Positions 7,965 through 38,623 of a stretch of 64,000 bases of DNA are shown here, in pieces. The stretch is taken from contig NZ_VSSB01000002.1 in NCBI RefSeq assembly GCF_008122505.1, positions 992,001 through 1,056,000 of the forward strand, read 5' to 3'. A program made the translations under genes and the position numbers. The stretch comes from Agromyces mariniharenae (lineage in GTDB: Bacteria > Actinomycetota > Actinomycetes > Actinomycetales > Microbacteriaceae). Every line of letters starts with the position of its first letter. Position 1 is the stretch's first letter. Under the pieces are notes generated by a model. The model was not told the origin of the DNA, ran no database searches, and saw only the letters and a list, made by a program, of their open reading frames with translations.

Positions 7965-9755
<1,791 letters not shown>

Positions 9756-27476: not shown

Positions 27477-27521
27477 CTACTTCTTCTTGGCGTCCTTCGA
27501 CTCGGTCTCCCCCGAGAGCGC
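27477..27521 (-). pseudogene. displaced native 3' end of lepA (left attachment site)
   Basis: Minus-strand 45 bases encode ALSGETESKDAKKK and a TAG stop. This aligns codon for codon with the present end of lepA (36764-36808, [14 protein letters not shown]). Bases 27501-27521 match 36788-36808 at 20 of 21 positions, and this is the likely crossover region. The segment contains the imperfect symmetry CTCGG/CCGAG. It marks the left border of the island and preserves the host's original lepA tail. Confidence 0.85.
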
Positions 27522-27590
27522 TAACCGAGCAAGAACGGCCGCCCGGCCCTCTTCTTTCTCGACAACGCCTCCGAGAAGGGACATTCCACA

Positions 27591-29087
27591 ATGACGAAGC
27601 CTATCCGCGCGGTCCTCTACGTCCGCATTTCAGCCTCCGACGACGACTCGACCTCGATCGCCCGACAGGAGGCTGACCTCCGCGAGATCGCCGCCCGCGA
27701 GGGTTGGGACGTTATCGAGCCGCCTCTCGTCGACGACGGGATCTCGGGCCGGAAGGCCCGCGCGAACGCCACCGAAGCGCTCCGGATGATCGCCGACGGC
27801 GAGGCCGACGTCCTGGCGGTGTGGAAGTTCGATCGCTGGACGCGACAGGGCCTCTCCGCTGTCGGCGTCCTCGCCGACACTCTGAAGGACGCCCCCGGAT
27901 CGCTCTTCGTCTCCCTTCGCGACGGCCTCCGCTCCGATCAGCCCGCCTTCGGGATCATCGCCTCGGTCCTCGCAGAGGTCGCGAAGATGGAGGCCGAGAA
28001 CACGTCCGCCCGCGTGCGGAGCTCGATCTCTCACCTGAAGACAGTCGGCCGCTTTCATGGCGGCGTCGTCCCCTTCGGTTACGACGCGATCCCCAACCCC
28101 GACGGACCGGGCCGCGTGCTCGTCCTGAACGCGGCGGAGGCCGCGATCGTCCGCGAGATCGCCGAGCGTCTCTGTCGTGGTGAGTCGACGACGAAGCTCG
28201 CGCTCGACCTCACGGCTCGCGGCGTGCCGACCGTCCGTAGCGACTACCGCCGCGCCCTGAAGACCGGGCGACCCGCGGAGGGCCTCGACCGCGGCCACTG
28301 GCTCGGCGGGACGATCCAGAAGACGTGGACGTCGGCTCACCTTCTCGGCTACGTGCTCCACCGCGGCGAATACGTCCGCGGCGAGGACGGCCTCCGCCTC
28401 CGAGTCTGGCCCGCCGTGATCGACTTCGAGACTCGCGAGCGAGTCCTCGCCCGTCTGCGGAATCCGGGCACGACCGAGGGGAAGCGGTCCCGCCGCAAGC
28501 GGGCGGCGCGCCTCCTCTCGGGCCTCGCCTTCTGCGCGGGCTGCGGCGCGCGAATGCACATCGGCATGTCGAGGGGCGTCCCGATGTACGCCTGCCCGAA
28601 TGATCTCGACCGGCGCTGCGAGCGTCCGCGCATGACCGCCGCGAATGCCGAGCGGATCGTCGTCGAGCGCTTCCTCGCGATCGTCGGATCTCACCCCGAG
28701 CTGGAGATCGTCCAGCTCGTCGGCGACCCCGGCGTCTCCGAGGAGCTCGCCGAGATCGAGGCGGGCCTCCGAGAGGCTTCGACCGAGCTCCTCCGGGATG
28801 ATGCCGACTCTGCCGCGCTCTTCGCTCGCATCGGGGCTCTGAAGGCTCGTCGTGCCGAGCTCAGCTCGGCGTCGGCCGAGATCCGGGAGGTCGGACGGCC
28901 GACCGGCCGAACCTACGCGGAGGCATGGGACGCCGCCGAGCTCGACGAGCGTCGCCGTCTCCTCGGCTCGGCGATGGATCACGTCGCGATCCGCAAGCTC
29001 CGCCCGGAGGAGCCTCGGAAGGGCCTCCACCGCGACCGCGTCGCGATCGTCTGGGCTGACGAGCTCGCGGAGGTCGAAGCCGCCTGA
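27591..29087 (+). CDS. large serine integrase
   Basis: Site-specific serine recombinase, 498 aa. Catalytic N-terminal resolvase domain: VLYVRISASDDDSTSIARQE (Ser near residue 20) and VWKFDRWTRQG. Then a recombinase domain (FHGGVVPFGYD, the block around WTSAHLLGYVLHRGEY), a zinc ribbon with CAGCG and, later, two further cysteines (CPN, RRCERP), and a coiled coil near residues 380-430. Starts 70 bases inside the left border with AAGGGA as ribosome site. It most probably catalyses integration into lepA. A degenerate hairpin-array unit (27545) lies in its leader. Confidence 0.95.
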   Translation: MTKPIRAVLYVRISASDDDSTSIARQEADLREIAAREGWDVIEPPLVDDGISGRKARANATEALRMIADGEADVLAVWKFDRWTRQGLSAVGVLADTLKDAPGSLFVSLRDGLRSDQPAFGIIASVLAEVAKMEAENTSARVRSSISHLKTVGRFHGGVVPFGYDAIPNPDGPGRVLVLNAAEAAIVREIAERLCRGESTTKLALDLTARGVPTVRSDYRRALKTGRPAEGLDRGHWLGGTIQKTWTSAHLLGYVLHRGEYVRGEDGLRLRVWPAVIDFETRERVLARLRNPGTTEGKRSRRKRAARLLSGLAFCAGCGARMHIGMSRGVPMYACPNDLDRRCERPRMTAANAERIVVERFLAIVGSHPELEIVQLVGDPGVSEELAEIEAGLREASTELLRDDADSAALFARIGALKARRAELSSASAEIREVGRPTGRTYAEAWDAAELDERRRLLGSAMDHVAIRKLRPEEPRKGLHRDRVAIVWADELAEVEAA

Positions 29088-29163
29088 CGCCTCCCCCCGA
29101 AGGTCGCTCCAGCCGCGTTTGCACGACGCGCCGGGGCGGCCTTCGGCGTGTGTAAACACCGCT

Positions 29164-29423
29164 GGCCCTCTTCTACTTCGAGGGCCCGTGACGGGCGTAC
29201 CGGCGAGCTGGCCCTCTTCTCTTTCGAGGGCCGTGACGCCCTGCAACACTCCCGGCCCTCTTCTATCTCGTGGCCCCTCGCCGTTCGGCGTAACCCTGGC
29301 CCTCTACTCTTTCGAGGGCCCGTGACGTGTGTCCCACCTTCCCGGCCCTCTCTTCTTTCGTGGGGTTGTGACGAAGTCTGAGCAGCCGAGGCCCTCCCGG
29401 CCCTCTACTATCTCGACCCCTCT
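29164..29423. repeat. array of six small hairpin repeats
   Basis: Six copies of GGCCCTC-N9-GAGGGCC, or decayed versions, start at 29164, 29210, 29254, 29298, 29344 and 29399, mostly at 44-46 base intervals. The nine-base loop is pyrimidine-rich (TTCTACTTC, TTCTCTTTC, TTCTATCTC). Most are followed by GTGACG. The first, second and fourth keep a perfect 7-base stem; the others have lost the right arm. A seventh degenerate copy lies at 27545 ahead of the integrase. The unit lies between the integrase and capsid genes; function unknown (iteron, structured RNA or binding-site array). Confidence 0.85.
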
Positions 29424-29976
29424 CTCGCGCCTCTCCGGCGCACCCCTGACCCCCGAGCCGCCCCGTTCCTGCGCGAGCGCCTCGGCCCGCGGCGATGACG
29501 CTGCACCGCGAGCCGCCCGGTCGTCCTTTCTCGGGCACGCTCGCACCCCCGCGAGCTCGGCTGATTATCGGCGGCCGATCTCGCGCCCGCGACGCCTCCG
29601 GGTTGGTTCCCCGGCGCGTCGCGCGGCGATCCTCCGTATGGCTTCCGGAGGCTCTCGCCGAACGGCGGCCCTCCCGTCTGCGCTCCTGTCGCGATGGAGG
29701 GGGTCGCCTCCTTCAGCTTCCGGACGGGCGTCCCCTGCGCCCGGTCCTACCCCTTCTTGCGCCGTGAGTCGCGAGGGGATCCCGTCCGGTCGGCGCTCCC
29801 GCGCCACCCCTTCGGCGACGCCGAGCTCGTCCGCGTGCAGGCCACGCGACGCGGCTCGATCGCGCCACCCCTACCCCTTCGGACTCCGGCCGCCGAGCAG
29901 GCCTCGACGGATCCAGCGTCCCGCGAAGCCGCGAGGGGCTCCTTCCCAACCCAACCCCTAACCCAAGGAGCAACCC
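29424..29976. other. non-coding stretch before the capsid gene
   Basis: About 550 bases in which I see no convincing gene on either strand. Open frames exist but are Arg/Pro/Ser-rich and lack ribosome sites. CCCCTTC occurs repeatedly (near 29752, 29810, 29875) and CGCGAGGGG twice (near 29770, 29930). Directly before the capsid start there is an AACCC-rich run and AAGGAG at the correct distance. Possibly a long leader or packaging/replication region. Confidence 0.5.
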
Positions 29977-30867
29977 ATGCCCAACAACATCCTTACTGCC
30001 GATCAGGTCGCCGAGATCGGCGCGAAGCTCGTCGGCGGCGACCTCGGAATCTCGAAGCTCTTCAGCCGGGACGTCGAAGCCGACTTCGGCGGCGGCACCG
30101 GCGACACGATCCGCGTCCGCATCCCCGGCGCTGTCCCGTCGCGTGAGCGCGCCGCGAACGACGTCAGCACGGCCCTCGCGGTCGACACGATCTCGGAGCA
30201 GAGCGTCCCGGTCACCCTCGACACGCTCGCCTACTCGAACGTCGCGCTCTCCGTGGCAGACACCGAGCTGAACATGATGGACTTCGGCAAGCAGGTGATC
30301 TACCCGCAGACCCGCGCGATCACTCGTAAGGTCGAGTCGGAGGCCGCCGCCGCGCTGGTCGCGACCCCGGCGACCGCCCTCACCTACGCCAGCGCGACTC
30401 CGGCGAAGCTCTTCACCGCGATCCGGAAGACCCTCCGCGACCGTGGCGTCGACGCCGAGTCGAAGATCGTCGCGGTCGTCGGTAGCTCGGTGTACGCGGA
30501 CCTCCTCGACGGCCCGGCGGGTACGTGGGACGCGACCGGCTCGACCGTCCGCGGGATCGAGATCCACGAGTCGAGCCGCATCGCGGCCGATAACGTGATC
30601 GCCTTCACCCGCGAGGCCTTCTCCCTCGTGGTCCGCGCTCCCGAGCCCCCGGCGGGCGCGCCCTACGCGGCATCGATCCGCGCCGAGGGTGACTCGCCCT
30701 TCGCGCTGACGCACATTCAGGCCTTCGACGTCGCGACCGGCTCCGACCGCTCGATCGTCGAGGCGCTCGTCGCCGTCGTCCCGATGCCTCAGGCGAAGGA
30801 CAACGAAGACGGAACCGTGACCCTCGTCCCGCATGGCAACGCTGTGCGCGTGGACACCGCGGCCTAG
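29977..30867 (+). CDS. P22-type phage major capsid protein
   Basis: 296 aa. Similar in layout to the P22 coat family: the N-terminus MPNNILTADQVAEIGAKLVG, GDTIRVRIPG, TISEQSVPVTLDTLAYSNVA with MMDFGKQVIYPQTRAITRKV, then a helical dimer of the HK97 fold and a long C-terminal beta part. Ribosome site AAGGAG seven bases upstream. No scaffold, portal or protease gene follows, so it is either the sole structural protein or relies on a helper phage. The family assignment is by remembered motif pattern, not by search. It is the clearest viral hallmark in the island. Confidence 0.85.
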   Translation: MPNNILTADQVAEIGAKLVGGDLGISKLFSRDVEADFGGGTGDTIRVRIPGAVPSRERAANDVSTALAVDTISEQSVPVTLDTLAYSNVALSVADTELNMMDFGKQVIYPQTRAITRKVESEAAAALVATPATALTYASATPAKLFTAIRKTLRDRGVDAESKIVAVVGSSVYADLLDGPAGTWDATGSTVRGIEIHESSRIAADNVIAFTREAFSLVVRAPEPPAGAPYAASIRAEGDSPFALTHIQAFDVATGSDRSIVEALVAVVPMPQAKDNEDGTVTLVPHGNAVRVDTAA

Positions 30868-30971
30868 GCCTAACGGCCCTCTCGGCGGGTCGCCCCTCTT
30901 CCCTCTCGGGCGGAGCGGGCGGCCCGCCTCTCTCTGTCCCTCTCCCCGTGACGTTTCTCTAGGAGGCCCTC

Positions 30972-31136
30972 ATGCCCGCGCCCGTCGTGATCTCCTGCGG
31001 CTTCTGCCGCTTCCCGTTCACCGCCGCGAACGCCTACGCCGTCGCCTGCGGCGCTACGTGCCGCCGACGCCTCTTCCGCGCCCGCGAGCGCGCCGCCCGC
31101 CTCGCTCTCGCGGCGGCCTTCTTCGACCGCGTGTAA
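30972..31136 (+). CDS. 54-aa zinc-ribbon-like protein
   Basis: Short frame with an excellent ribosome site (AGGAGG five bases upstream). MPAPVVISCGFCRFPFTAAN is followed by AYAVACGATCRRRLFRARER and a basic/alanine helix ending FFDRV. Four cysteines as CGFC and CGATC suggest one zinc knuckle. Follows the capsid gene by 104 bases containing a GTGACG motif. Its stop codon lies in the start of the 180-base direct repeat. No named family; possible small regulator or capsid-associated protein (guess). Confidence 0.7.
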   Translation: MPAPVVISCGFCRFPFTAANAYAVACGATCRRRLFRARERAARLALAAAFFDRV

Positions 31137-31310
31137 ACGCCCTGGCCTCCCTCGGAGTGACGAACGGTGACGATCGGTGACGGAACCGTCACCGCCCAAC
31201 TTCCGCGTCATTCCGGGCCTCGCGGCCTCTCGGCGGCCCAGCAGTGACGAAACGCCACGAATCCCCTTAGTAGCCCTAGATGGGTCTTCTCAGTGGTCTA
31301 GTCGCGTGCC
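31131..31310. repeat. long direct repeat, copy A
   Basis: 180 bases beginning GTGTAAACGCCCTGGCC and ending GTCTAGTCGCGTGCC. About 88 percent identical by eye to copy B (35405-35584). It contains two direct GGTGACG motifs and the palindrome CGGTGACGG-AA-CCGTCACCG. The first 17 bases also resemble the head of the hairpin array (29150, GTGTAAACACC). A non-coding control or replication region is likely. Confidence 0.85.
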
Positions 31311-31389
31311 GGCTCGGGCCCGCCGCCCCCTAAATCTCCGACGGCCTCGCGTCGTCGGCTCCCTCGCGCCGGGATTGATCCCCCGCGCG

Positions 31390-31461
31390 CGTCTGTGTGG
31401 ATGGGAGGCCCCGTCACGCTTCAGCGTGGCGGGGTTCACCGCACAGACGACACCCCATCCC
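31390..31461 (+). promoter_or_regulatory. structured leader upstream of the HNH-like gene
   Basis: CCCCGTCACGCT (31409-31420) pairs with AGCGTGGCGGGG (31423-31434) around a tiny loop, with one G-U pair. CGTCTGTG (31390-31397) pairs with CACAGACG (31443-31450) around this hairpin. GGATGGG (31399-31405) can pair with CCCATCC (31455-31461), but this would cross the outer stem, so the two are either a pseudoknot or alternative folds. Ends 21 bases before the ATG. Confidence 0.6.
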
Positions 31462-31481
31462 ACACCCCCTCTGGAGCCCTC

Positions 31482-32228
31482 ATGCCCGCAACCTCGCCCA
31501 CCCCCGACCGCGCCGCTCGCGCCCGCGCCCGACGCGCCGCCGACCTCGCCGACCGTGAGGCGGCCACCCTCGACGTTCTGGAGTGGATCCTCCCGGCCTA
31601 CGCCGCCCATAGGATCCGCCGGATCGCCTTCTCGGCGCTCTGGAAGGACCTACAGACGGTCCCCGGCATCCTCGGCCGGGACGGCCTGTATCGCCTCCTG
31701 TCGACTCTCGACGGCGCTCGCCTCGACGGCGACCTGATCGTCCGGATCGCCGATCACGAGCGTACCGCCCGCCGCTCGCTCGTCCTCCGCCGCCGCCTTA
31801 CCGCGTGGGAAGATCAGCGCCCCTACCTCCGGGACTTCCGCTTCCGCGGCGGTCACCCTCCCCGCCCGATCTCGTATCGCGCCGCTCACGCCCGCGTCCG
31901 CGCCGAGCGCGGCCCTGCATCCGCTCAGTGGTGCGACGGCTGCGGCGAGCGGGCCGAAGAGTGGGCCTACACCGGCTCGTCCCTCGACGAGCAGGTCGGC
32001 CCGCCGTACCGCGGCGCGGAGGACTTCGCCCTCTGGAGCCCCTACCCCGCCGACTACGCGCCGATGTGCCGCCGCTGTCATCACGAGCTCGACGCTTCCG
32101 GCGTCCTCTGGGGCGACGCCCCGCTCCCTCCGCGCCGCCCGGTCGGTCCGGTCGTCGACTTCGCCGAGCTCCCCGCTGACGCGCCCGCATGGCTGCGCGC
32201 CATGGCCCCGGAGGCCGCCGACCGATGA
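31482..32228 (+). CDS. HNH-like zinc protein of the island
   Basis: 248 aa. A helical, winged-helix-like N-terminal half (about residues 25-110, VLEWILPAYAAHRIRRIAF to ADHERTARRS) precedes a zinc-site-like C-terminal half: WCDGCGERAEEWAYTGS, then SPYPADYAPMCRRCHHELD. The CxxC/CxxCH arrangement with an upstream Tyr/Asp block is like phage HNH endonucleases, but the catalytic first His is not evident. Start ATG 31482 is set by the alignment of the short A/R-rich start and a GGAG box. It may be a nuclease or replication/regulatory protein. First gene of an overlapping run that continues to 32861. Confidence 0.65.
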   Translation: MPATSPTPDRAARARARRAADLADREAATLDVLEWILPAYAAHRIRRIAFSALWKDLQTVPGILGRDGLYRLLSTLDGARLDGDLIVRIADHERTARRSLVLRRRLTAWEDQRPYLRDFRFRGGHPPRPISYRAAHARVRAERGPASAQWCDGCGERAEEWAYTGSSLDEQVGPPYRGAEDFALWSPYPADYAPMCRRCHHELDASGVLWGDAPLPPRRPVGPVVDFAELPADAPAWLRAMAPEAADR

Positions 32229-32323
32229 CCGAATTCCTCGCCCGCGTCGAGGCGACGCTCGACGCCTACCTCGCCGCCCACCCTCGCCCGTTCCCTCCCG
32301 TTACCGAAAGGCCCGCCCGATGA
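32225..32323 (+). CDS. 32-aa coupled protein
   Basis: Starts ATGA inside the HNH-like stop and ends inside the next start (CGATGA). Sequence begins MTEFLARVEATLDAYLAAHP and continues with proline-rich residues to TERPAR. Coupling on both sides is the main support. A predicted amphipathic helix (residues 2-18) and no known family. Too short for gene callers. Confidence 0.55.
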   Translation: MTEFLARVEATLDAYLAAHPRPFPPVTERPAR

Positions 32324-32637
32324 CTCTCCGCCTGTCCGCCCTCGTGAAGGCTGCTGCCGACGCGCCGACCCTCCCGAGGTCGGTCGACGCGCTCGACGCC
32401 GACACCCGCGCCCGCCTCGACGCCTTCGCTGCCCGTGAGTCCCTCACCATCGACGCCGCCCGAACCGAGCTCCGCGCCGCCGCCCGAGTCGAGGAGGCCG
32501 TCTCGACTTCGCTCCGGCGTCGCCGTCTCGGCCTCGTCGGCGAGCTGTCGATCGAGCCAGAGCTCGACGCCGCGACGGATGCTGTCGTCGCCTCGGTCCT
32601 CGACGCTCGTACCGCCGCGAACGGGGTCCGCGCGTGA
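32320..32637 (+). CDS. hypothetical island protein, 105 aa
   Basis: Overlaps its neighbours on both sides by four bases. Alanine- and arginine-rich, nearly all helical, with repeated acidic/basic heptads (LDADTRARLDAFAARESLTI, LRAAARVEEAVSTSLRRRRL). No cysteine, membrane segment or recognised motif. Coding status rests on the overlap pattern, ribosome site (AAAGG) and codon bias. Role unknown. Confidence 0.6.
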   Translation: MTLRLSALVKAAADAPTLPRSVDALDADTRARLDAFAARESLTIDAARTELRAAARVEEAVSTSLRRRRLGLVGELSIEPELDAATDAVVASVLDARTAANGVRA

Positions 32638-32861
32638 GCAACAACCGCAAGCGCCAGATGCTCCGGACCGCTGGAGCTGACCGCCTCCGCGAGAGCCTCT
32701 CGTCCGGCGTCCCGCCGTCCGCTGACGCTGCCGTCCCGTCGTCCCGAGAGGCCCGTCGGGCCGCCGAGCGGGAAGCCCGCCGGGACGCTCGTCGGGACGC
32801 CGCGTCGTCCGCTGTCCCGTCCCTCGCGGACCTCGCGGCCCGTCTCGACGGCGACCGCTGA
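32634..32861 (+). CDS. hypothetical island protein, 75 aa, basic
   Basis: Starts GTG (GTGA overlap with the previous gene). Begins MSNNRKRQMLRTAGADRLRE and has the highly charged helix SREARRAAEREARRDARRDA, then a short SLADLAARLDGDR tail. Very basic middle and likely coiled coil or nucleic-acid binding. No family recognised. Confidence 0.6.
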   Translation: MSNNRKRQMLRTAGADRLRESLSSGVPPSADAAVPSSREARRAAEREARRDARRDAASSAVPSLADLAARLDGDR

Positions 32862-32909
32862 CCCGTCCCGTCCCGCTGTCCCACCGCCCCACCCCGAAAG
32901 GACCCTCCG

Positions 32910-33422
32910 ATGACCCTCGATCTCTCCGCCGTCCCGCCGTCCCAGCGCGTCCATGTCGGGCGCCGGGCAAAGCAGCTCCTCGCCTATGCTGACCCGCAGA
33001 CCGCGAGGCGTGCGCCCGCGAAGCTCCGACACAACCTGACCCGCGACGCCTTCCTCGGCCTGACCGTCGCTGAGCGCGAGGCCCATATCCGCGCCCGCGT
33101 TCCGGCCATGGCGCTCGCCGAGCTCGCCGAGCGCCGCGACCGCCGCGCCGCCGAGCAGGCCGCCGCCGCAGAGCCGCCCGCCGCGCCTCGCGGCCCTCGG
33201 AAGTTCCGTCCCGGTGCGCTCTTCGCGATCTCCGACGCCTCTGGCGAGTGGGCCCCGATCGCCGTCGTCCGGCGCGAGGAGTCCGCGGCCCACGCTGCGA
33301 AGGCCGAGGCTCGTCGTCGCCGTCGCGCGTGGCTCGCGGAGCGTCGCGCGGCCTGGCCTAAACTCCGAGCTCGTCGACGACCGCCTCTAGCGCCTTCCAC
33401 TCCCGACGGAATGCCCAGATGA
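32910..33422 (+). CDS. hypothetical island protein, 170 aa
   Basis: Ribosome site AAAGGA nine bases upstream of ATG. N-terminal part LDLSAVPPSQRVHVGRRAKQ with RHNLTRDAFLGLTVAEREAH, an Arg/Ala-rich helix, and a short beta-like segment FRPGALFAISDASGEWAPIA followed by a basic Arg-rich tail. It overlaps the convergent 66-aa gene by about 65 bases, so the last part of one of the two frames may be non-native. No family recognised. Confidence 0.6.
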   Translation: MTLDLSAVPPSQRVHVGRRAKQLLAYADPQTARRAPAKLRHNLTRDAFLGLTVAEREAHIRARVPAMALAELAERRDRRAAEQAAAAEPPAAPRGPRKFRPGALFAISDASGEWAPIAVVRREESAAHAAKAEARRRRRAWLAERRAAWPKLRARRRPPLAPSTPDGMPR

Positions 33423-33558
33423 TCGCGACGAGCTCGGGGCCCGGCGCTCCGGCCTCCTGCGCGGCGAGCAGCGTCGCGTAGCAGGCGTGCGCGCTCGACT
33501 CGTGGAGCGTCTCGCCCGGCGCGTCCACGATCGCCCGGCGGATCTCCTCCGGCGTCAT
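33358..33558 (-). CDS. hypothetical island protein, 66 aa
   Basis: ATG 33558 overlaps the upstream 140-aa gene's stop by four bases. MTPEEIRRAIVDAPGETLHE, then SSAHACYATLLAAQEAGAPG and IIWAFRREWKALEAVVDELG. Probably an all-helical small protein. Convergent and overlapping with the 170-aa gene. The longer open frame extending to 33957 lies out of frame within the 140-aa gene and is rejected. Confidence 0.55.
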   Translation of the reverse strand: MTPEEIRRAIVDAPGETLHESSAHACYATLLAAQEAGAPGPELVAIIWAFRREWKALEAVVDELGV

Positions 33559-33977
33559 TTCCTGCCGAGGCCGGGCAGGCCGCCCCTGAGTGCCCGGATG
33601 CTTCGGCGGGGCTTGCGCTTGCCTTTCGCCTTCTGGCCCTCCTTGCACCATCGCCCATCGGCGCGCTGGTGAGCGTAGAGCTCCCCGTCTCCGCTCACGC
33701 CGACGACGAGTCCACACGCGGGGCACGCCTGATGCTCGGCAGGCTTCTTCGGCCGATCCTTCTTCGTCGGCGGAGGTACGGCGGAAGTCTCCTTCGGCGT
33801 CTCGGCCGCCTTCTTCTCGCGCGGCGGCGTGGGGGCCTTGCTCCCGCCGGGAGAGCTCGCCGTCTTCGTGAACGAACAGCGGAGGCCTCCCCGGCCGGTG
33901 TGCTCGTCGACGTAGCCCTCGGCTAGCACCCGGACACGCGCGCCGCACACCGGGCATGCGATGGTGATCGGCGGCAC
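33555..33977 (-). CDS. duplicated zinc-ribbon protein, 140 aa
   Basis: Two copies of a CPxCG module separated by a Lys/Pro-rich linker. First: CPVCGARVRVLAEGYVDEHT with GRGGLRC. Second: CPACGLVVGVSGDGELYAHQ with ADGRWC. Each holds three cysteines and a histidine for one zinc. C-terminus basic with RKPRRS and a Gly/Arg tail. Small zinc proteins of this kind in phages often bind DNA or RNA, but the specific function here is unknown. Operon with the 66-aa gene on the minus strand, which is opposite to the capsid block. Confidence 0.65.
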   Translation of the reverse strand: MPPITIACPVCGARVRVLAEGYVDEHTGRGGLRCSFTKTASSPGGSKAPTPPREKKAAETPKETSAVPPPTKKDRPKKPAEHQACPACGLVVGVSGDGELYAHQRADGRWCKEGQKAKGKRKPRRSIRALRGGLPGLGRK

Positions 33978-33981
33978 CTGA

Positions 33982-34242
33982 TTACCCGTTCTCGATCGCG
34001 ACGAACAGCGCGAGGACAGCTATCGCGGTGCTGATTACAGAGAGCACAGTCCCGACGACCGACAGCCAGAATGAGTTGCGTGCGAGTCGGTTCGCCGCGA
34101 CGGTAGCGCGATCCCGCGAGCGACGGTCGAGCTCGTCGAGGTAGTAGTTCACTCCGACCTGAGTCGACTTCGCTACGTGATCGTGCTCGGCGACGAGCTC
34201 GTCGTCTGTCATTCCGCGGAGTCTCTCGATCGAGTAGCCCAT
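33982..34242 (-). CDS. small membrane protein with C-terminal anchor, 86 aa
   Basis: Begins MGYSIERLRGMTDDELVAEH, with a polar helical part including VNYYLDELDRRSRDRATVAA, then NSFWLSVVGTVLSVISTAIA and VLALFVAI, a hydrophobic segment near residues 58-83, and a short tail ENG. Similar tail-anchored proteins occur in actinobacteria and phages. Start 34242 is preferred because the upstream extension is Arg-rich and out of character; GAGGG lies close to the ATG. Confidence 0.65.
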   Translation of the reverse strand: MGYSIERLRGMTDDELVAEHDHVAKSTQVGVNYYLDELDRRSRDRATVAANRLARNSFWLSVVGTVLSVISTAIAVLALFVAIENG

Positions 34243-34277
34243 TCCCTCACGATATCGGCGGTGTCTGACGCCGGAGG

Positions 34278-34303
34278 GGTGGGGAGGTACCCCCCTCCCC
34301 ACC
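34278..34303 (-). terminator. hairpin after the 253-aa gene
   Basis: GGTGGGGAGG and CCTCCCCACC form a 10-base stem with a TACCCC loop. It lies about 157 bases beyond the stop of the 253-aa gene and before the 86-aa gene, both on the minus strand. The rest of the 217-base interval shows nothing clear. Confidence 0.6.
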
Positions 34304-34459
34304 GCGGCCTTCCCTGTCGGAGAGGCATAGCGCCTTCCAACCGGTACGTATCGCTTCCGTTTGTGGGCGCGTGAGCACAGGCCGCCTCGTCGGCGCTCCG
34401 TCGTGGCCCCAAGCCCGCTGATCGCGCCTCGCACCCGGGTCGATAAAGCGTGCCGGCCT

Positions 34460-35221
34460 CTAGCTGACTTCGGGGATCGGCTCCTTCGGCCCGGTGTAGT
34501 CGTGAAGGTCAGCGGGGGTCGTCACCTTGTGGAAGCGTGCCGCTGACTGCCCGGCGGGCACGAGGCCAACTCGATAACCCCTCTTGGCCACCCCCACCCA
34601 ATCGAAATCCCTGAGCTCGCCCTCCCAGACTTCAACTTTTCGCCACTTCGGCTTCCGCGAGGTCCACACTTCGAGAGTGAAGGTGAGCCGCTGAACGACG
34701 GGCTTTTCCCAACGACTCCAAAACAGAAACCGCTTGTCGATACTGGACTTCGGAAGCACGATGAACGGCGTTCCCGGCCCGCGACGCGCCTCAAGAGACG
34801 GACGGCGCGGCCCCGATCCGAGCTCAGTCTCCGTATCGAGCTCCCAGTTCAGCTCCCAGATCTCGTGCGCGTCCGGAATCGGAAGGCCCGGATAATCAAC
34901 TCTTACCCGAAGCCCCCGAATCACGACCGCCCGCGCACCGGTGTTCGCGATGGTTACCGGGATAGCGAGATCCGGGACGATCCAGCCTGAACCGGATGGT
35001 CCGCCGTCATTTCGAAAGCGGGAAACGGAGAGGCTCGCGATTCCCGGTGCCCAGATCAACTTTCCGCGGGAGAAATGAGTCCGCCACATGGCGATGCCTG
35101 AAATGACCGCGGCGAACACGGCCACTACGAAGGCGGCCACGGCGAGGGGGTCGATTTCGCTCGATCCCCGTTCCCCATCAGCAGGCCGCAGAACGACTGT
35201 CAGCACTTCGTAGAGATACAT
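34460..35221 (-). CDS. membrane-anchored hypothetical protein, 253 aa
   Basis: ATG 35221 with GGGAGG five bases upstream. One hydrophobic segment (LAVAAFVVAVFAAVISGIAM, about residues 26-45), then a beta-rich domain: IVPDLAIPVTIANTGARAVV, IRGLRVRVDY, and later SRWEKPVVQRLTFTLEVWTS, typical of an immunoglobulin-like fold. It has visibly different codon use from host genes (more A/T in the third position). Proteins of this kind are often found in prophage moron or defence loci, but the actual function is unknown. The longer frame to 35476 extends into the direct repeat and is rejected. Confidence 0.7.
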   Translation of the reverse strand: MYLYEVLTVVLRPADGERGSSEIDPLAVAAFVVAVFAAVISGIAMWRTHFSRGKLIWAPGIASLSVSRFRNDGGPSGSGWIVPDLAIPVTIANTGARAVVIRGLRVRVDYPGLPIPDAHEIWELNWELDTETELGSGPRRPSLEARRGPGTPFIVLPKSSIDKRFLFWSRWEKPVVQRLTFTLEVWTSRKPKWRKVEVWEGELRDFDWVGVAKRGYRVGLVPAGQSAARFHKVTTPADLHDYTGPKEPIPEVS

Positions 35222-35404
35222 CTCGCCTCCCTGTCGAGATGCTAGCGGCGAACGCCGTGCTGATCTCTCACCCGAACAGATCGCCGCCTCATCAATTCTG
35301 TGCGGATTGTTGGTTGCCTTTCGGCCTCTGGGTCCTCCCATGAGGCGGTCCGGGGTCTTTCGCCTTCTACGGGGCGCTGAGCGCTTCGCGGCAGAAGCTG
35401 GAGC

Positions 35405-35584
35405 GTGTAAACGCCCTGGCCTCCCCCTGAGTGACGAAGGGTGGCGATCGGTGACGGAACCGTCACCGCCCAACATCCGCGTCGTTCCGGGCCTCGTGGA
35501 CCCGTGGCGGCGTACCAGTGACGAAACGCCCCGAATCCCCCTAGTAGCCCCTAGATGGGTCTTCTCAGTGGTCTCGTCGCGTGC
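35405..35584. repeat. long direct repeat, copy B
   Basis: Matches copy A (31131-31310) over 180 bases, including the GTGTAAACGCCCTGGCC head, CGGTGACGG-AA-CCGTCACCG, and the TGGGTCTTCTCAGTGGTCT tail. One of the GGTGACG motifs is changed to GGTGGCG. It lies in a 407-base non-coding stretch between the divergent 253-aa and 77-aa genes (35222-35628). The segment between copies holds the HNH-like block and all minus-strand genes. Confidence 0.85.
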
Positions 35585-35628
35585 GGTGCCGTCCCGCCGA
35601 CGTCGGCGGCCGGTGCGATGCTCGCCCC

Positions 35629-35862
35629 GTGAGCAACACCCGCCCGCCGCTCGCCTCCGTCGCGATCCGGTTCACGACCGCCGACGGCCGCGAGCTCGTG
35701 CTCGACTTCGACGCCCGCCCGAGCTCGCCGATTCACGTCGCTCGCGGCGAGCTCGATCTCGTCGACGCGGGGACGCGCGAAACGCTCCTCGTCGGCGTCT
35801 GGCGGGCGCTCGCATGGGAGGCGCACGCCCGCGAGTCGGCTACCGACCGCGGCGACGGCTAG
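35629..35862 (+). CDS. hypothetical island protein, 77 aa
   Basis: GTG 35629. Sequence MSNTRPPLASVAIRFTTADG, then RELVLDFDARPSSPIHVARG and a helical C-terminus (TLLVGVWRALAWEAHARES). Mixed alpha/beta with no cysteine. No family recognised. Located just after direct repeat B, as the HNH-like gene lies after repeat A. Start choice is uncertain; the earlier frame from 35581 lies in the repeat tail. Confidence 0.55.
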   Translation: MSNTRPPLASVAIRFTTADGRELVLDFDARPSSPIHVARGELDLVDAGTRETLLVGVWRALAWEAHARESATDRGDG

Positions 35863-35878
35863 CTAAGGACGTGTCGGG

Positions 35879-35890
35879 TACGGTTGCCGA
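35879..35890 (+). promoter_or_regulatory. leaderless promoter box
   Basis: TACGGT followed by six bases and the GTG at 35891. Confidence 0.5.
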
Positions 35891-36208
35891 GTGGCAAGAG
35901 ACGCGCAACCGGCACCGTCCATCCGCGACGCATTCATCGCACTGCTCTTCGTCGGCGTCGCCATGTGGGCTCAATTCGTAGCGTGGTCAGTCTTCGACGA
36001 GGCTGGCGGCGACTGGATGCATTTCGTCGGCGGCGGCGGGCGGAGTCCGGCCGTCCCGATGTGGGTCATCTTCGGAATGGACTGGGCACTGACCCTCTTC
36101 AGCGCCGCCGTCGTCGTCGCATACGTCTGGTCGGTCGTGCGATATGTACGCGAGACCCGGCTACGCGACGACGCTCGCGAGGCTGCGCCCGTTTCCCCTG
36201 TCGACTAG
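35891..36208 (+). CDS. two-helix membrane protein, 105 aa
   Basis: MARDAQPAPSIRDAFIALLF; first membrane helix residues 13-33, a loop with Gly-rich GDWMHFVGGGGRSPAVPMW, then a second helix (VIFGMDWALTLFSAAVVVAY, about residues 59-82) and a basic C-terminus. GTG start is set by the TACGGT box six bases upstream (leaderless). Its stop lies over the middle lepA-tail copy. No family recognised. Confidence 0.65.
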   Translation: MARDAQPAPSIRDAFIALLFVGVAMWAQFVAWSVFDEAGGDWMHFVGGGGRSPAVPMWVIFGMDWALTLFSAAVVVAYVWSVVRYVRETRLRDDAREAAPVSPVD

Positions 36209-36252
36209 CTATTCTTGCGGGTATCGCGCTTCTCGGTCTCGGCAGAGATTGC
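36205..36252 (-). repeat. middle copy of the lepA 3' end (third attachment site)
   Basis: Minus strand encodes AISAETEKRDTRKNS and TAG, closely related to the present end of lepA ([14 protein letters not shown]). The 20-mer GTATCGCGCTTCTCGGTCTC at 36221-36240 is identical to 36777-36796. The copy lies 556 bases from the right site and brackets only the EF-Tu domain III-like gene, indicating a second, smaller or remnant unit. Confidence 0.8.
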
Positions 36253-36296
36253 GGCGAACGGCCGTGTCAGCGCACTTCTCCACGATGATTGAGGCC

Positions 36297-36698
36297 ATGA
36301 CCGACGCCTGCCCAGCCATCGGCATTCGACTCGCCTTCACGACCACCGAGGCAGGAGGACGGCGCACCCCGTTGCTCGGCGGAAATTCGACCGATGTGCG
36401 GATGCAGTACCGTCCGAACTGGGGACTTCCGGGCTGGCCGGATGGCGACCAGACCGGCGCTCCGGTTCTCGGATTCAGCACGTCCAATATCCGCCCGGGC
36501 GACACAACCGACGCCATCATCATTCCGCTGTTCGCCGACAACGTCCCGCAGTGGTGGGACGTCGCGCCGGACGATGTGCTGCGGATGTACGAAGGATCGC
36601 GTGTCTGCGGAGTCGCCACCGTCCTCTGGGTCGACCGAACCACGCTGAAGCTCAGTGAGGCAGAGGCGGAGCGGCTCCTCAAGCGGCTGAGCGCCTAG
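36297..36698 (+). CDS. EF-Tu domain III-like protein, 133 aa
   Basis: Sequence IGIRLAFTTTEAGGRRTPLL, with MQYRPNWGLP, NIRPGDTTDAIIIPLFADNV, then VLRMYEGSRVCGVATVLWVD. These correspond in order to the EF-Tu C-terminal barrel signature (EGGR-TP, YRP-F, PGD, REG-RTVG-GVV). No GTPase domain is present, so it is a free-standing barrel. Starts ATG 36297 (36285 possible). It lies between the middle and right lepA-tail copies, as the only gene of that interval. Function unknown; it could bind tRNA, EF-Ts or another translation partner. Confidence 0.7.
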   Translation: MTDACPAIGIRLAFTTTEAGGRRTPLLGGNSTDVRMQYRPNWGLPGWPDGDQTGAPVLGFSTSNIRPGDTTDAIIIPLFADNVPQWWDVAPDDVLRMYEGSRVCGVATVLWVDRTTLKLSEAEAERLLKRLSA

Positions 36699-36763
36699 AG
36701 GCCCGAAGGCCTGCTATTTCAAGCAACGCCGCGCGCCGACTTGCCGTCACATCCGTCCACGGA

Positions 36764-36808
36764 CTACTTCTTGTTGGTATCGCGCTTCTCGGTCTCGCCC
36801 GAGAGCGC
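36764..36808 (-). other. right attachment site within lepA
   Basis: The last 15 codons of lepA ([14 protein letters not shown] and stop). The core 36788-36808 matches 27501-27521 with one mismatch; the distal codons differ, as expected if they come from the element. The insertion supplies a new but conserved C-terminus, so LepA stays functional. Confidence 0.85.
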
Positions 36809-38623
36809 GGCGATGAACGCCTCCTGGGGCACCTCCACGCGGCCGACCATCTTCATGCGCTTCTTGCCCTCCTTCTGCTTCTCGAGGAGCTTGCGCTTGC
36901 GGGTGATGTCGCCGCCGTAGCACTTCGCCAGCACGTCCTTGCGCATCGCGCGGATCGACTCGCGGGCGATGATGCGCGCGCCGATCGCCGCCTGGATCGG
37001 CACCTCGAACTGCTGCCGCGGGATGAGCTCGCGCAGGCGACCGGTCATCAGCACGCCGTAGGCGTAGGCCTTGTCGCGGTGCACGATGGCGCTGAACGCG
37101 TCGACCTGCTCGCCCTGGAGCAGGATGTCGACCTTCACGAGGTCGGCGGCCTGCTCGCCCGAGGGCTCGTAGTCGAGGCTCGCGTAGCCGGCCGTCTTGG
37201 ACTTCAGCTGGTCGAAGAAGTCGAACACGATCTCGCCGAGCGGGATGTCGTAGCGGATCTCGACTCGGTCCTCGCCGAGGTACTCCATGCCGAGGAGGCT
37301 GCCGCGACGCGACTGGCAGAGCTCCATGATCGTGCCGACGTAGTCCTTCGGCGCGAGGATGGCCGCCTTCACCATGGGCTCGCGGACCTCGGCGATCTTG
37401 CCGCCGGTCGGGAACTCGCTGGGGTTCGTGACCGTGACGGTCTTCTTGTCTTCGGTGGTCACCTCGTAGACCACCGACGGCGCCGTGTTGATGATGTCGA
37501 GCCCGAACTCGCGACGCAGGCGCTCGGTGACGATCTCGAGGTGCAGGAGGCCGAGGAACCCGGCGCGGAAGCCGAAGCCGAGGGCCACCGACGTCTCGGG
37601 CTCGTAGACGAGCGCGGCATCCGACAGCTTGAGCTTGTCGAGCGCCTCGCGGAGCTCGGGGTAGTCGCTGCCGTCGATCGGGTAGAGCCCCGAGAACACC
37701 ATCGGCAGCGGCTCGGTGTAGCCCGACAGCGGCTCGGTCGCGGACTTGACCGCCGTCGTCACCGTGTCGCCCACCTTCGACTGGCGCACGTCCTTCACGC
37801 CGGTGATGAGGTAGCCGACCTCGCCGACGCCGAGGCCCTTCGTGGGGGTCGGCTCGGGCGCGCTCACGCCGATCTCGAGGATCTCGTGGGTCGCCTTCGT
37901 CGACATCATCTGGATGCGCTCACGCGGGTTGAGCTTGCCGTCGACCATGCGCACGTAGGTGACGACGCCGCGGTAGCTGTCGTAGACGGAGTCGAAGATC
38001 ATCGCGCGGGCCGGGGCATCCGCATCGCCGACCGGCGCCGGGATGCGCTCGACGACGCGGTCGAGCAGGTCCTCGACGCCCATGCCGGTCTTGCCCGAGA
38101 CGCGGAGCACGTCGTCGGGCGACCCGCCGATGAGGTCGGCGAGCTCCTTCGCGTACTTCTCGGGCTCGGCGGCCGGCAGGTCGATCTTGTTGAGCACGGG
38201 GATGATCTCGAGGTCGTTCTCGAGCGCGAGGTAGAGGTTCGCGAGCGTCTGCGCCTCGATGCCCTGCGCGGCATCGACGAGCAGGATCGCGCCCTCGCAC
38301 GCCGCCAGCGAGCGCGAGACCTCGTAGCTGAAGTCGACGTGACCGGGGGTGTCGATCATGTTCAGCGCGTACGACGTGTCGCCGAGCTGCCACGGCATGC
38401 GCACGGCCTGGCTCTTGATGGTGATGCCGCGCTCGCGCTCGATGTCCATGCGGTCGAGGTACTGCGCGCGCATGTCGCGGTCGGACACGATGCCCGTGAT
38501 CTGCAGCATGCGGTCGGCGAGCGTCGACTTGCCGTGGTCGATGTGCGCGATGATGCAGAAGTTGCGGATCAGCGCGGGATCGGTGGCGGCGGGCACCGGC
38601 GGGTCGGAGGCTCTCGGAGACAT
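36764..38623 (-). CDS. lepA: elongation factor 4 (LepA), tail replaced by island
   Basis: Ribosome-associated translational GTPase. 619 aa, of normal length. G1 [11 protein letters not shown]2 [11 protein letters not shown]3 DTPGHVDF, G4 LNKIDLP, plus the LepA-specific C-terminal domain ([48 protein letters not shown]). All residues up to about 604 are native; the last 14 codons appear to come from the integrated element. ATG at 38623. Divergent from the sensor kinase gene. Confidence 0.97.

What the first reader, a model, noticed from the sequence alone, without database searches (positions are those of the whole stretch)
27477..36808. Small capsid-encoding integrative element inserted in lepA, candidate undescribed satellite
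Seen: a 9.3-kb island between lepA-tail copies, with a large serine integrase, one P22-type major capsid protein, and about a dozen small genes, and no recognisable portal, terminase, scaffold, tail, lysis, relaxase or replication initiator. Known: phage satellites may carry a few structural genes and use helper particles. Inference: this is a minimal satellite or capsid island whose coat protein may alter a helper capsid or build its own shell.
Basis: partly seen in the sequence, partly recalled or inferred. Interest (0 to 1): 0.9.

Follow-up and report, generated by a model that had tools for sequence, protein, structure and literature searches.

The report
Capsid-carrying cos satellite in lepA
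A 9-kb DNA parasite sits in a soil bacterium's lepA gene; it carries its own virus-shell protein and a phage DNA-packaging site but little else of a phage, and it belongs to an apparently undescribed family of elements that probably ride in the particles of larger phages.

Summary
Observation confirmed; the satellite reading is supported and extended. The island (27477-36808) lies between lepA-tail copies and holds a large serine integrase, an intact HK97-fold/P22-type major capsid protein (MCP) and small genes, without portal, large terminase, protease, tail or lysis gene. It is not a decayed prophage: 19 such integrase+MCP elements were found, in several actinobacterial families and insertion genes. 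Sixteen of 17 element MCPs on a tree form one supported clade beside phage MCPs, and lack a loop kept by 49 of 49 phage MCPs. Ten measured elements are 8.3-9.5 kb.

Strongest new evidence: the island carries the cos site (cohesive ends) of Azeevirinae/Zetavirus-type phages at 34269-34345. A pattern for it, loosened after inspection, fits 13 of 21 elements (0.075 expected), some directly before a small-terminase gene as in the phages.

Best explanation: an integrative cos satellite packaged by a related 40-48-kb helper, whose own MCP builds or redirects a small capsid. Closest precedent: SaPIbov5/Ccm. Packaging, capsid size and helper are inferred, not shown. New variant of a known kind; no description found in the papers searched.

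The parts
27477..27521 (-). displaced original lepA 3' end: outer att site beside int
   Evidence: blastn match to 12 of 14 same-genus lepA ends (74-91%); best direct repeat with 36764-36808 (score 46, shuffle maximum 31)
27591..29087 (+). large serine integrase, 498 aa
   Evidence: Resolvase, Recombinase, Zn_ribbon_recom; phrog_95 E 2e-80
29162..29424 (+). six copies of CYGGCCCTC spaced 44-55 bp in the integrase-MCP gap; six in L063; three in L058 and two in L062 (these two not beyond shuffles)
   Evidence: chain of 6; most in 20 shuffles 4 (window), 3 (L063)
29977..30867 (+). major capsid protein (HK97 fold, P22-type), 296 aa, AAGGAG upstream
   Evidence: dN/dS 0.14-0.24 among four elements
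30972..31136 (+). 54-aa Cys-rich protein after MCP
   Evidence: matches in 10 other elements or contigs at E up to 0.0052
31129..31325 (.). ~198-bp direct repeat, copy 1
   Evidence: 88% identical to 35403-35599
31482..32228 (+). 248-aa protein, possible HNH fold (weak); ten relatives have a 234-346-aa protein of other sequence here
   Evidence: phrog_4160 E 1e-18 (unknown function); 7 matches, the query included
32225..32323 (+). 32-aa ORF
   Evidence: codon-usage prediction only
32320..32637 (+). 105-aa family protein
   Evidence: L058 1e-15, L062 4e-5, L055 3e-4
32634..32861 (+). 75-aa family protein
   Evidence: L055 4e-16
32910..33422 (+). 170-aa family protein; in L055 and L062 its relative follows a head-tail adaptor gene that this element lacks
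   Evidence: L062 2e-12, L055 1e-5
33358..33558 (-). 66-aa protein, resembles small ORFs of L058, L062, L090 (by eye only)
   Evidence: gene maps
33555..33977 (-). CxxC zinc-ribbon-like protein (weak)
   Evidence: all hits below curated cut-offs
33982..34242 (-). 86-aa ORF with hydrophobic end (accessory)
34269..34345 (+). cos site: G-run/C-run inverted repeat, 11-base CGGAGAGGCAT, junction after 34328, AGCGCC
34460..35221 (-). 253-aa accessory protein in the place where several relatives have TerS after cos
35403..35599 (.). ~198-bp direct repeat, copy 2
35629..35862 (+). 77-aa family protein, homologue near the far end of L058
   Evidence: E 4e-30 (searched as a 93-aa frame)
35891..36208 (+). 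105-aa accessory ORF
   Evidence: no Pfam match
36212..36257 (-). third lepA-tail-like att site (probable scar of tandem or serial insertion)
36285..36698 (+). 137-aa ORF between two att-like sites
   Evidence: no Pfam match
36764..36813 (-). element-supplied lepA 3' end, inner att site

Best explanation
The island is an integrative phage satellite of the cos type. The serine integrase inserts it into the 3' end of lepA and the element supplies a replacement tail, so lepA stays whole (inferred from comparison with same-genus lepA loci). When a related tailed phage (Azeevirinae/Zetavirus type, ~40-48 kb, 11-base 3' cohesive ends) infects, the element is excised and copied (inferred). The helper terminase recognises the element's cos site at 34269-34345 and packages the ~9.3-kb unit (site shown, cutting inferred). 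The element's own HK97-fold MCP, a separate branch beside phage MCPs that lacks a ~10-residue loop, builds the small shell or is mixed into the helper shell so that it suits the unit (inferred from its conservation, the even element size and the Ccm precedent). The helper gives portal, large terminase, protease and tail. This copy also lacks the TerS and head-tail adaptor that some relatives keep, so it should need the helper's.
For: (1) Of 81 MCP loci 19 have a nearby serine integrase and none of the phage core genes screened; 53 have one or more; 9 are fragments or unclear. (2) 16 of 17 element MCPs on the tree, plus two of unknown context, form one clade (98/96), beside a clade of 34 phage MCPs (93/86). 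All 75 added database homologues (some are the same proteins as loci) fall in it and no phage does (quick tree, branch support 69). (3) 49 of 49 phage MCPs keep a loop (11-17 residues there); 16 of 17 element MCPs keep 1-6. (4) dN/dS 0.14-0.24 in six pairs of four elements. (5) cos: exact GGCATAGCG occurs 12 times in 23 loci (432 kb), 9 of them inside elements after G/C runs on the MCP strand; a looser pattern, made after looking, fits 13 of 21 elements, 0.075 expected from shuffles. PMC8758107 (passages) reports 11-base 3' overhangs CGAAGGGGCAT for three cluster AZ phages; the window has CGGAGAGGCAT, 9 of 11 the same, and phage contig L157 has exactly the window's 11-mer between HNH and TerS. 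The site lies between HNH and TerS in 9 of 14 phage or prophage loci examined. (6) cos directly before TerS in L055, L058, L092. (7) Ten element sizes: mean 9.01 kb, SD 0.39. (8) Elements lie in lepA, dprA and other genes.
Against: No excision, induction, particle or transfer data. The host assembly shows no resident helper of this type: one MCP match and one exact cos match. In the genome-wide scan a strict cos pattern hit 2 of 398 family genomes, but the same pattern read backwards also hit 2 (G188, G264), so the number alone is chance level; only the places (this island, and a prophage's HNH-TerS interval) speak for it. This copy lacks TerS, adaptor and the 234-346-aa protein of many relatives, so it could be reduced or inactive; the extra att-like site and the 198-bp repeat show rearrangement. 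cos was not found in L091, L059 (4.2-kb contig) or L097, and in five elements only variants picked by eye. The DNA fold of the inverted repeat beats shuffles in L062 (z -3.05), weakly in the window (z -1.83), not in L058 (-0.16) or prophage L052 (+0.38). L097 lies outside the clade and has the loop; two of 75 homologues inside the clade (P0057, P0073) have residues at the loop place; L051, L064, L091 and L097 are flagged as long branches.
Confidence: 0.8

Rival explanations
1. The MCP works like SaPIbov5 Ccm: it cannot build a shell alone but joins helper capsomers and forces a small capsid. The element remains a cos satellite.
For: Direct precedent: Ccm is a capsid-protein homologue in a cos satellite, occupies pentamers, gives T=4 shells and forms no capsid alone (PMC8569155, abstract and passages). 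Only 3 of 21 elements or contigs carry a recognised scaffold gene, so most would need the helper's assembly factors.
Against: Ccm is 24% identical to its helper CP; this MCP is up to 43% identical to phage MCPs over 95-99% of its length, and 9 of 21 keep an adaptor and 3 a scaffold, which fits a whole shell better (inference).
Confidence: 0.4
2. The satellite does not make small capsids; several copies are packaged as a concatemer in full-size helper capsids and the MCP has another role, such as harming helper assembly.
For: Four units would be about 37 kb against 40-48-kb helpers. [quoted passage not shown]
Against: A capsid gene under purifying selection with a clade-wide loop loss points to a structural role.
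Confidence: 0.15
3. Decayed remnant of a full prophage.
For: Small size, missing genes, att-like scar and direct repeat; the MCP frames of L057 and L063 are split.
Against: Recurring gene set in many hosts and sites, one MCP clade, 0 of 21 with TerL, portal, protease, MuF, major tail or tape measure (one weak tail-terminator hit in L048, E 4e-4), cos kept, low dN/dS.
Confidence: 0.05
4. A defence island or encapsulin-like compartment rather than a transferred satellite.
For: Foldseek also lists encapsulins; some relatives carry restriction-modification-type methylases.
Against: Integrase, cos and, in relatives, TerS, adaptor and scaffold have no place in an encapsulin system; sequence kinship is to phage MCPs.
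Confidence: 0.03

Closest known systems
cos-type SaPIs (SaPIbov5 with Ccm)
   Same: small integrated satellite carrying a phage cos site and a homologue of the helper capsid protein (PMC8569155 abstract and passages, PMC5052747 passages)
   Different: host phylum, serine integrase, MCP closer to phage MCPs, relatives with own TerS, adaptor or scaffold; no SaPI gene was recognised, but SaPI genes were not searched for by name
capsid-forming PICIs (cf-PICI)
   Same: own MCP; tail from the helper
   Different: cf-PICIs also bring protease, portal, connectors, TerS, TerL and HNH (PMC10690885 passage); portal, protease and TerL were not found in any of the 21 elements or contigs here
MiniFlayer / MulchRoom satellites of Streptomyces phages
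   Same: actinobacterial satellites with capsid genes
   Different: they carry TerS, TerL, portal, MCP, scaffold and adaptor and have direct terminal repeats; here no TerL or portal, cos ends, integrated with a serine integrase
Azeevirinae / Zetavirus-type temperate phages (Warda, Zeta1847) and Curtobacterium phage Mysterium
   Same: MCP kinship, cos type, TerS, adaptor, serine integrase
   Different: full 40-48-kb genomes with morphogenesis and replication genes; MCP loop present

Membership tests
phage satellite (general) | lacks genes needed to make a particle alone | tested here: met
   no TerL, portal, protease, major tail or tape measure in the window element, nor in the other 20 elements or contigs
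phage satellite (general) | carries a signal for helper packaging | tested here: met
   helper-type cos sequence in the window and 12 others by pattern; its use was not tested
phage satellite (general) | mobilised by a helper phage | not testable with these tools
   needs an infection experiment
cos-type SaPI / PICI | phage-type cos site plus capsid-protein homologue | tested here: met
   the helper itself is unknown
cos-type SaPI / PICI | PICI-exclusive genes and conserved replication-origin organisation (PMC6092414 abstract) | tested here: inconclusive
   no replication initiator recognised in the window; PICI genes were not searched as such; the repeat array at 29162 is unexplained
cf-PICI | encodes portal, protease and TerL besides MCP | tested here: not met
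   0 of 21
MiniFlayer-type satellite | encodes TerL and portal; direct terminal repeats | tested here: not met
   TerL and portal 0 of 21; terminal repeats not tested
Azeevirinae-type prophage or its remnant | MCP within the phage clade, core genes present or partly present | tested here: not met

The most novel reading that the evidence does not exclude
An old, single-origin family of actinobacterial cos satellites that bring only the shell: their own loop-less MCP alone forms a dedicated small capsid sized for ~9 kb, while portal, large terminase, protease and tails all come from the helper. This would be a packaging strategy between SaPIbov5 (helper shell altered) and cf-PICI (whole head carried).
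Probability: 0.42. Interest if true: 0.86.

Novelty: new variant of a known kind. Interest (0 to 1): 0.78.

Why it matters
It gives Actinomycetota an apparently undescribed family of capsid-carrying satellites, with a diagnostic MCP loop loss and a cos motif by which others, and likely helpers, can be found. It makes testable how little of a head a satellite must carry and how capsid size is set by the coat protein; some relatives carry restriction-modification-type genes that may protect their hosts.

Tried and rejected
Single-sequence MCP scan of viral contigs: no relative. The same query found nothing among plasmids. The wide alignment A1 could not be used on genome contigs, so a closer one, A2, was used. 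The repeat array in viral-contig hit 8 stretches; none held a satellite MCP or integrase match, two had one other weak match each. GTGACG words are enriched near the repeats, but the whole-element count (17) equals the highest of 200 shuffles; not used. Rfam: two matches, both below the gathering score. blastn of the cos area against phage records: only 19-base chance hits. A pattern for the window's cos with its following stretch hit one viral contig, the one already known as L017. The strict cos scan of viral contigs gave 14 stretches, 6 with phage HNH or terminase genes beside the site; the exact-overhang scan gave 5, of which 1 (L157) is a phage and 4 show no phage gene. Prophage remnant and encapsulin readings were rejected as told above.

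Rows dropped before counts: L060 and L089 duplicate L050 and L058; other short first fetches were replaced by longer ones. Two class matches, L085 and L087, were dropped and never examined in wider context, and L008 and L010-L014 were seen only with short flanks (counted as unclear). For the tree, 12 of 81 rows were left out (length under 240 or over 345, or L012-L014). The protein database searches scored only the 7994 and 7997 candidates sharing most words.

Literature: eight searches showed no description of such elements; several listings were capped, only openly licensed PMC papers are held and no preprints, so a description elsewhere is possible. The cf-PICI source paper was not read.

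Full report
WHAT IS THERE. The island lies between lepA-tail copies at 27477-27521 and 36764-36808 (direct-repeat score 46, maximum of 30 shuffles 31). Of 14 other same-genus lepA loci, 12 match the 27477 copy by blastn; its KDAKK ending is shared by 9 of 14, the window's present RDTNKK by none. So the element seems to have replaced the lepA end with its own; the empty join itself was not shown, because the outer flank was not found beside lepA in those loci. The genus is Agromyces: the same-genus genome G592 has a contig of the same length as an A. allii record. A third lepA-like tail at 36212-36257 suggests serial or tandem insertion; the inner unit would be about 8.7 kb, the whole 9.3 kb. 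Genes: serine integrase, MCP, a Cys-rich 54-aa protein, a 248-aa protein with a weak HNH match, and small genes, of which the 54-, 105-, 75-, 170- and 77-aa ones have relatives in other elements.

THE CAPSID PROTEIN. It matches phrog_283 at E 4e-32; Pfam's P22 model stays below its cut-off. AlphaFold2 gives pLDDT 88.4, and Foldseek finds mycobacteriophage Douge, P22 and HK97 capsids. The best phage records are Arthrobacter and Curtobacterium phages at up to 43%. Among the window, L055, L048 and L058 dN/dS is 0.14-0.24, so it is kept as a protein.

A FAMILY, NOT A RUIN. The MCP was searched in 299 family genomes (15 with a match at E 1e-3; 5 of these 15 proved to be elements), then, with an alignment and E 1e-20, in 396 order genomes (10 matches, 7 elements) and 394 class genomes (11 matches, 2 elements: this one and L097); some genomes are in more than one set. 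Genome contigs gave 12 loci and viral contigs 32. Loci were labelled by tblastn with annotated proteins of four phages: of 81, 53 have one or more core morphogenesis genes, 19 have a serine integrase nearby and none, 9 are fragments or unclear. In the tree of 69 MCPs, 16 of 17 elements plus L016 and L059 form one clade (98/96) beside 34 phage MCPs (93/86). L097 is an outlier with the loop and may be a second origin; four element rows are flagged as long branches. Adding 75 database homologues, whose contexts are mostly unknown, puts all 75 inside the element clade and no phage (quick tree, support 69). Phage MCPs, including more distant ones, keep a loop near window residue 186 (49 of 49); elements lack it (16 of 17), as do 73 of 75 homologues. 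That the loop lies in the A-domain is inferred from the order of the fold.

GENE CONTENT. Among 21 elements or contigs (19 elements and the fragments L016 and L059), 3 have a scaffold, 9 a head-tail adaptor and 2 a stopper; none has TerL, portal, protease, MuF, major tail or tape measure. One weak tail-terminator match in L048 (E 4e-4) is against a strict zero. TerS is supported by profile in L055, L058, L016, L061 and weakly L092; L090 has one by eye only, without a PHROG match. Profile scans of 150 of 156 predicted ORFs of 15 elements agree: Pfam's 22 families were all shown, but only the top 25 of 67 PHROG families. Ten of the 21 have a 234-346-aa protein between MCP and the later genes, not shown to be one family. 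Methylase or restriction genes occur in L048, L058, L062. The window has no recognised TerS or adaptor.

SIZE. L048, L050, L058 and L062 split dprA at the same place and L063 nearby. With lepA, the L049/L057 site, L051 (repeat score 39 against a shuffle maximum of 35) and L061 (from its gene map), ten sizes run from 8.3 to 9.5 kb, mean 9.01, SD 0.39. The window is counted at 9287. The other elements were not measured.

THE COS SITE. Comparing ends of phage genomes with elements gave the link. Phage records end in ...GGCAT (GTGAT in Attoomi) and begin AGCG; elements hold the joined form after G and C runs. Window: CGGAGAGGCAT|AGCGCC, junction after 34328, the only GGCATAGCG in 64 kb. Exact GGCATAGCG was found 12 times in 23 loci, 9 of them after G/C runs inside elements on the MCP strand, 3 elsewhere without such runs. 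A looser pattern, made after looking, fits 13 of 21, 0.075 expected from shuffles; five more have variants seen by eye (L061, L016, L090, L063, L051), three have none. It lies between HNH and TerS in 9 of 14 phage or prophage loci examined; one of these also has a chance hit elsewhere (L038). In 398 family genomes a strict pattern hits this island and the HNH-TerS interval of one prophage, but the backward control also hits two genomes, so only the places count. PMC8758107 (passages) reports 11-base 3' overhangs CGAAGGGGCAT in three cluster AZ phages. Eleven-mers of L049 and L057 equal that of Curtobacterium phage Mysterium, L017 equals Zeta1847 and L032, L064 equals four phage or prophage contigs; L057 is itself from Curtobacterium luteum. 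Phage contig L157 has exactly the window's 11-mer at its cos position; four other hits of that scan show no phage gene. Contig L032 shares the TACGTATCGC stretch after the junction with the window and L017. The inverted repeat folds better than shuffles in only one of four sites tested, weakly in the window.

HOW IT MOST LIKELY WORKS. Seen in sequence: the att pattern, gene content, MCP conservation, cos site. Inferred: induction by a helper, replication, cutting at cos by the helper's terminase, small capsid, helper tail. A 9-kb unit is about a fifth of a 40-48-kb helper, so a cos unit would fill a normal head poorly; a satellite-specific MCP is the natural remedy. The nearest tested case is SaPIbov5, where the capsid homologue Ccm takes the pentamers and gives T=4 shells but makes no shell alone (PMC8569155, abstract and passages; PMC5052747, passages). 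Here the MCP is closer to the phage proteins and some relatives bring scaffold and adaptor, so an own shell is at least as likely.

LIMITS. No experiment; the helper is unknown and none of this type was found in the host assembly; this copy may be reduced or inactive. Not-in-print rests on eight searches of a partial library, with capped listings. PMC9862828 (abstract and first part of its results) took Curtobacterium prophages with MCP plus TerL and so would leave such elements out; PMC10023795 (passages) only supposes that smaller actinobacterial elements, under 15 kb, may be satellites.

Noticed in passing
window 29162-29424; L063 9289-9516; L058 9436-9524: Array of CYGGCCCTC about every 45 bp in the non-coding integrase-MCP gap (beyond shuffles in the window and L063), with one more GGCCCTCT before int at 27545; could be replication iterons or regulator sites.
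   Followed up: partly
window 31129-31325 and 35403-35599: 198-bp direct repeat, 88% identical, framing 4.1 kb that holds several small and accessory genes and cos; no blastn match in the other 22 loci compared.
   Followed up: partly
window 36212-36764: ORF of 137 aa caught between two lepA-tail-like att sites, as if a second insertion had mostly been lost.
   Followed up: partly
L048, L050, L058, L062, L063: Five elements sit inside dprA and split it, four at the same position, so these hosts may have lost DprA function.
   Followed up: partly
L050 12631 and 13731 (in the reversed orientation): Two cos-like sites 1.1 kb apart in one element.
   Followed up: no
L055, L061, L062, L063, L090-L093, L016, L059: A 234-346-aa protein between the MCP and the later genes; seven were scanned and none gave a PHROG match at E 0.01; absent from the window.
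   Followed up: partly
L093 13797-14714: Protein that looks by eye like a TIR/SEFIR-type defence protein, soon after cos where others have TerS.
   Followed up: no
L097 (G921): Integrase plus MCP without other recognised phage genes but with a distant, loop-bearing MCP and no cos found: perhaps an independent origin of the same design.
   Followed up: no
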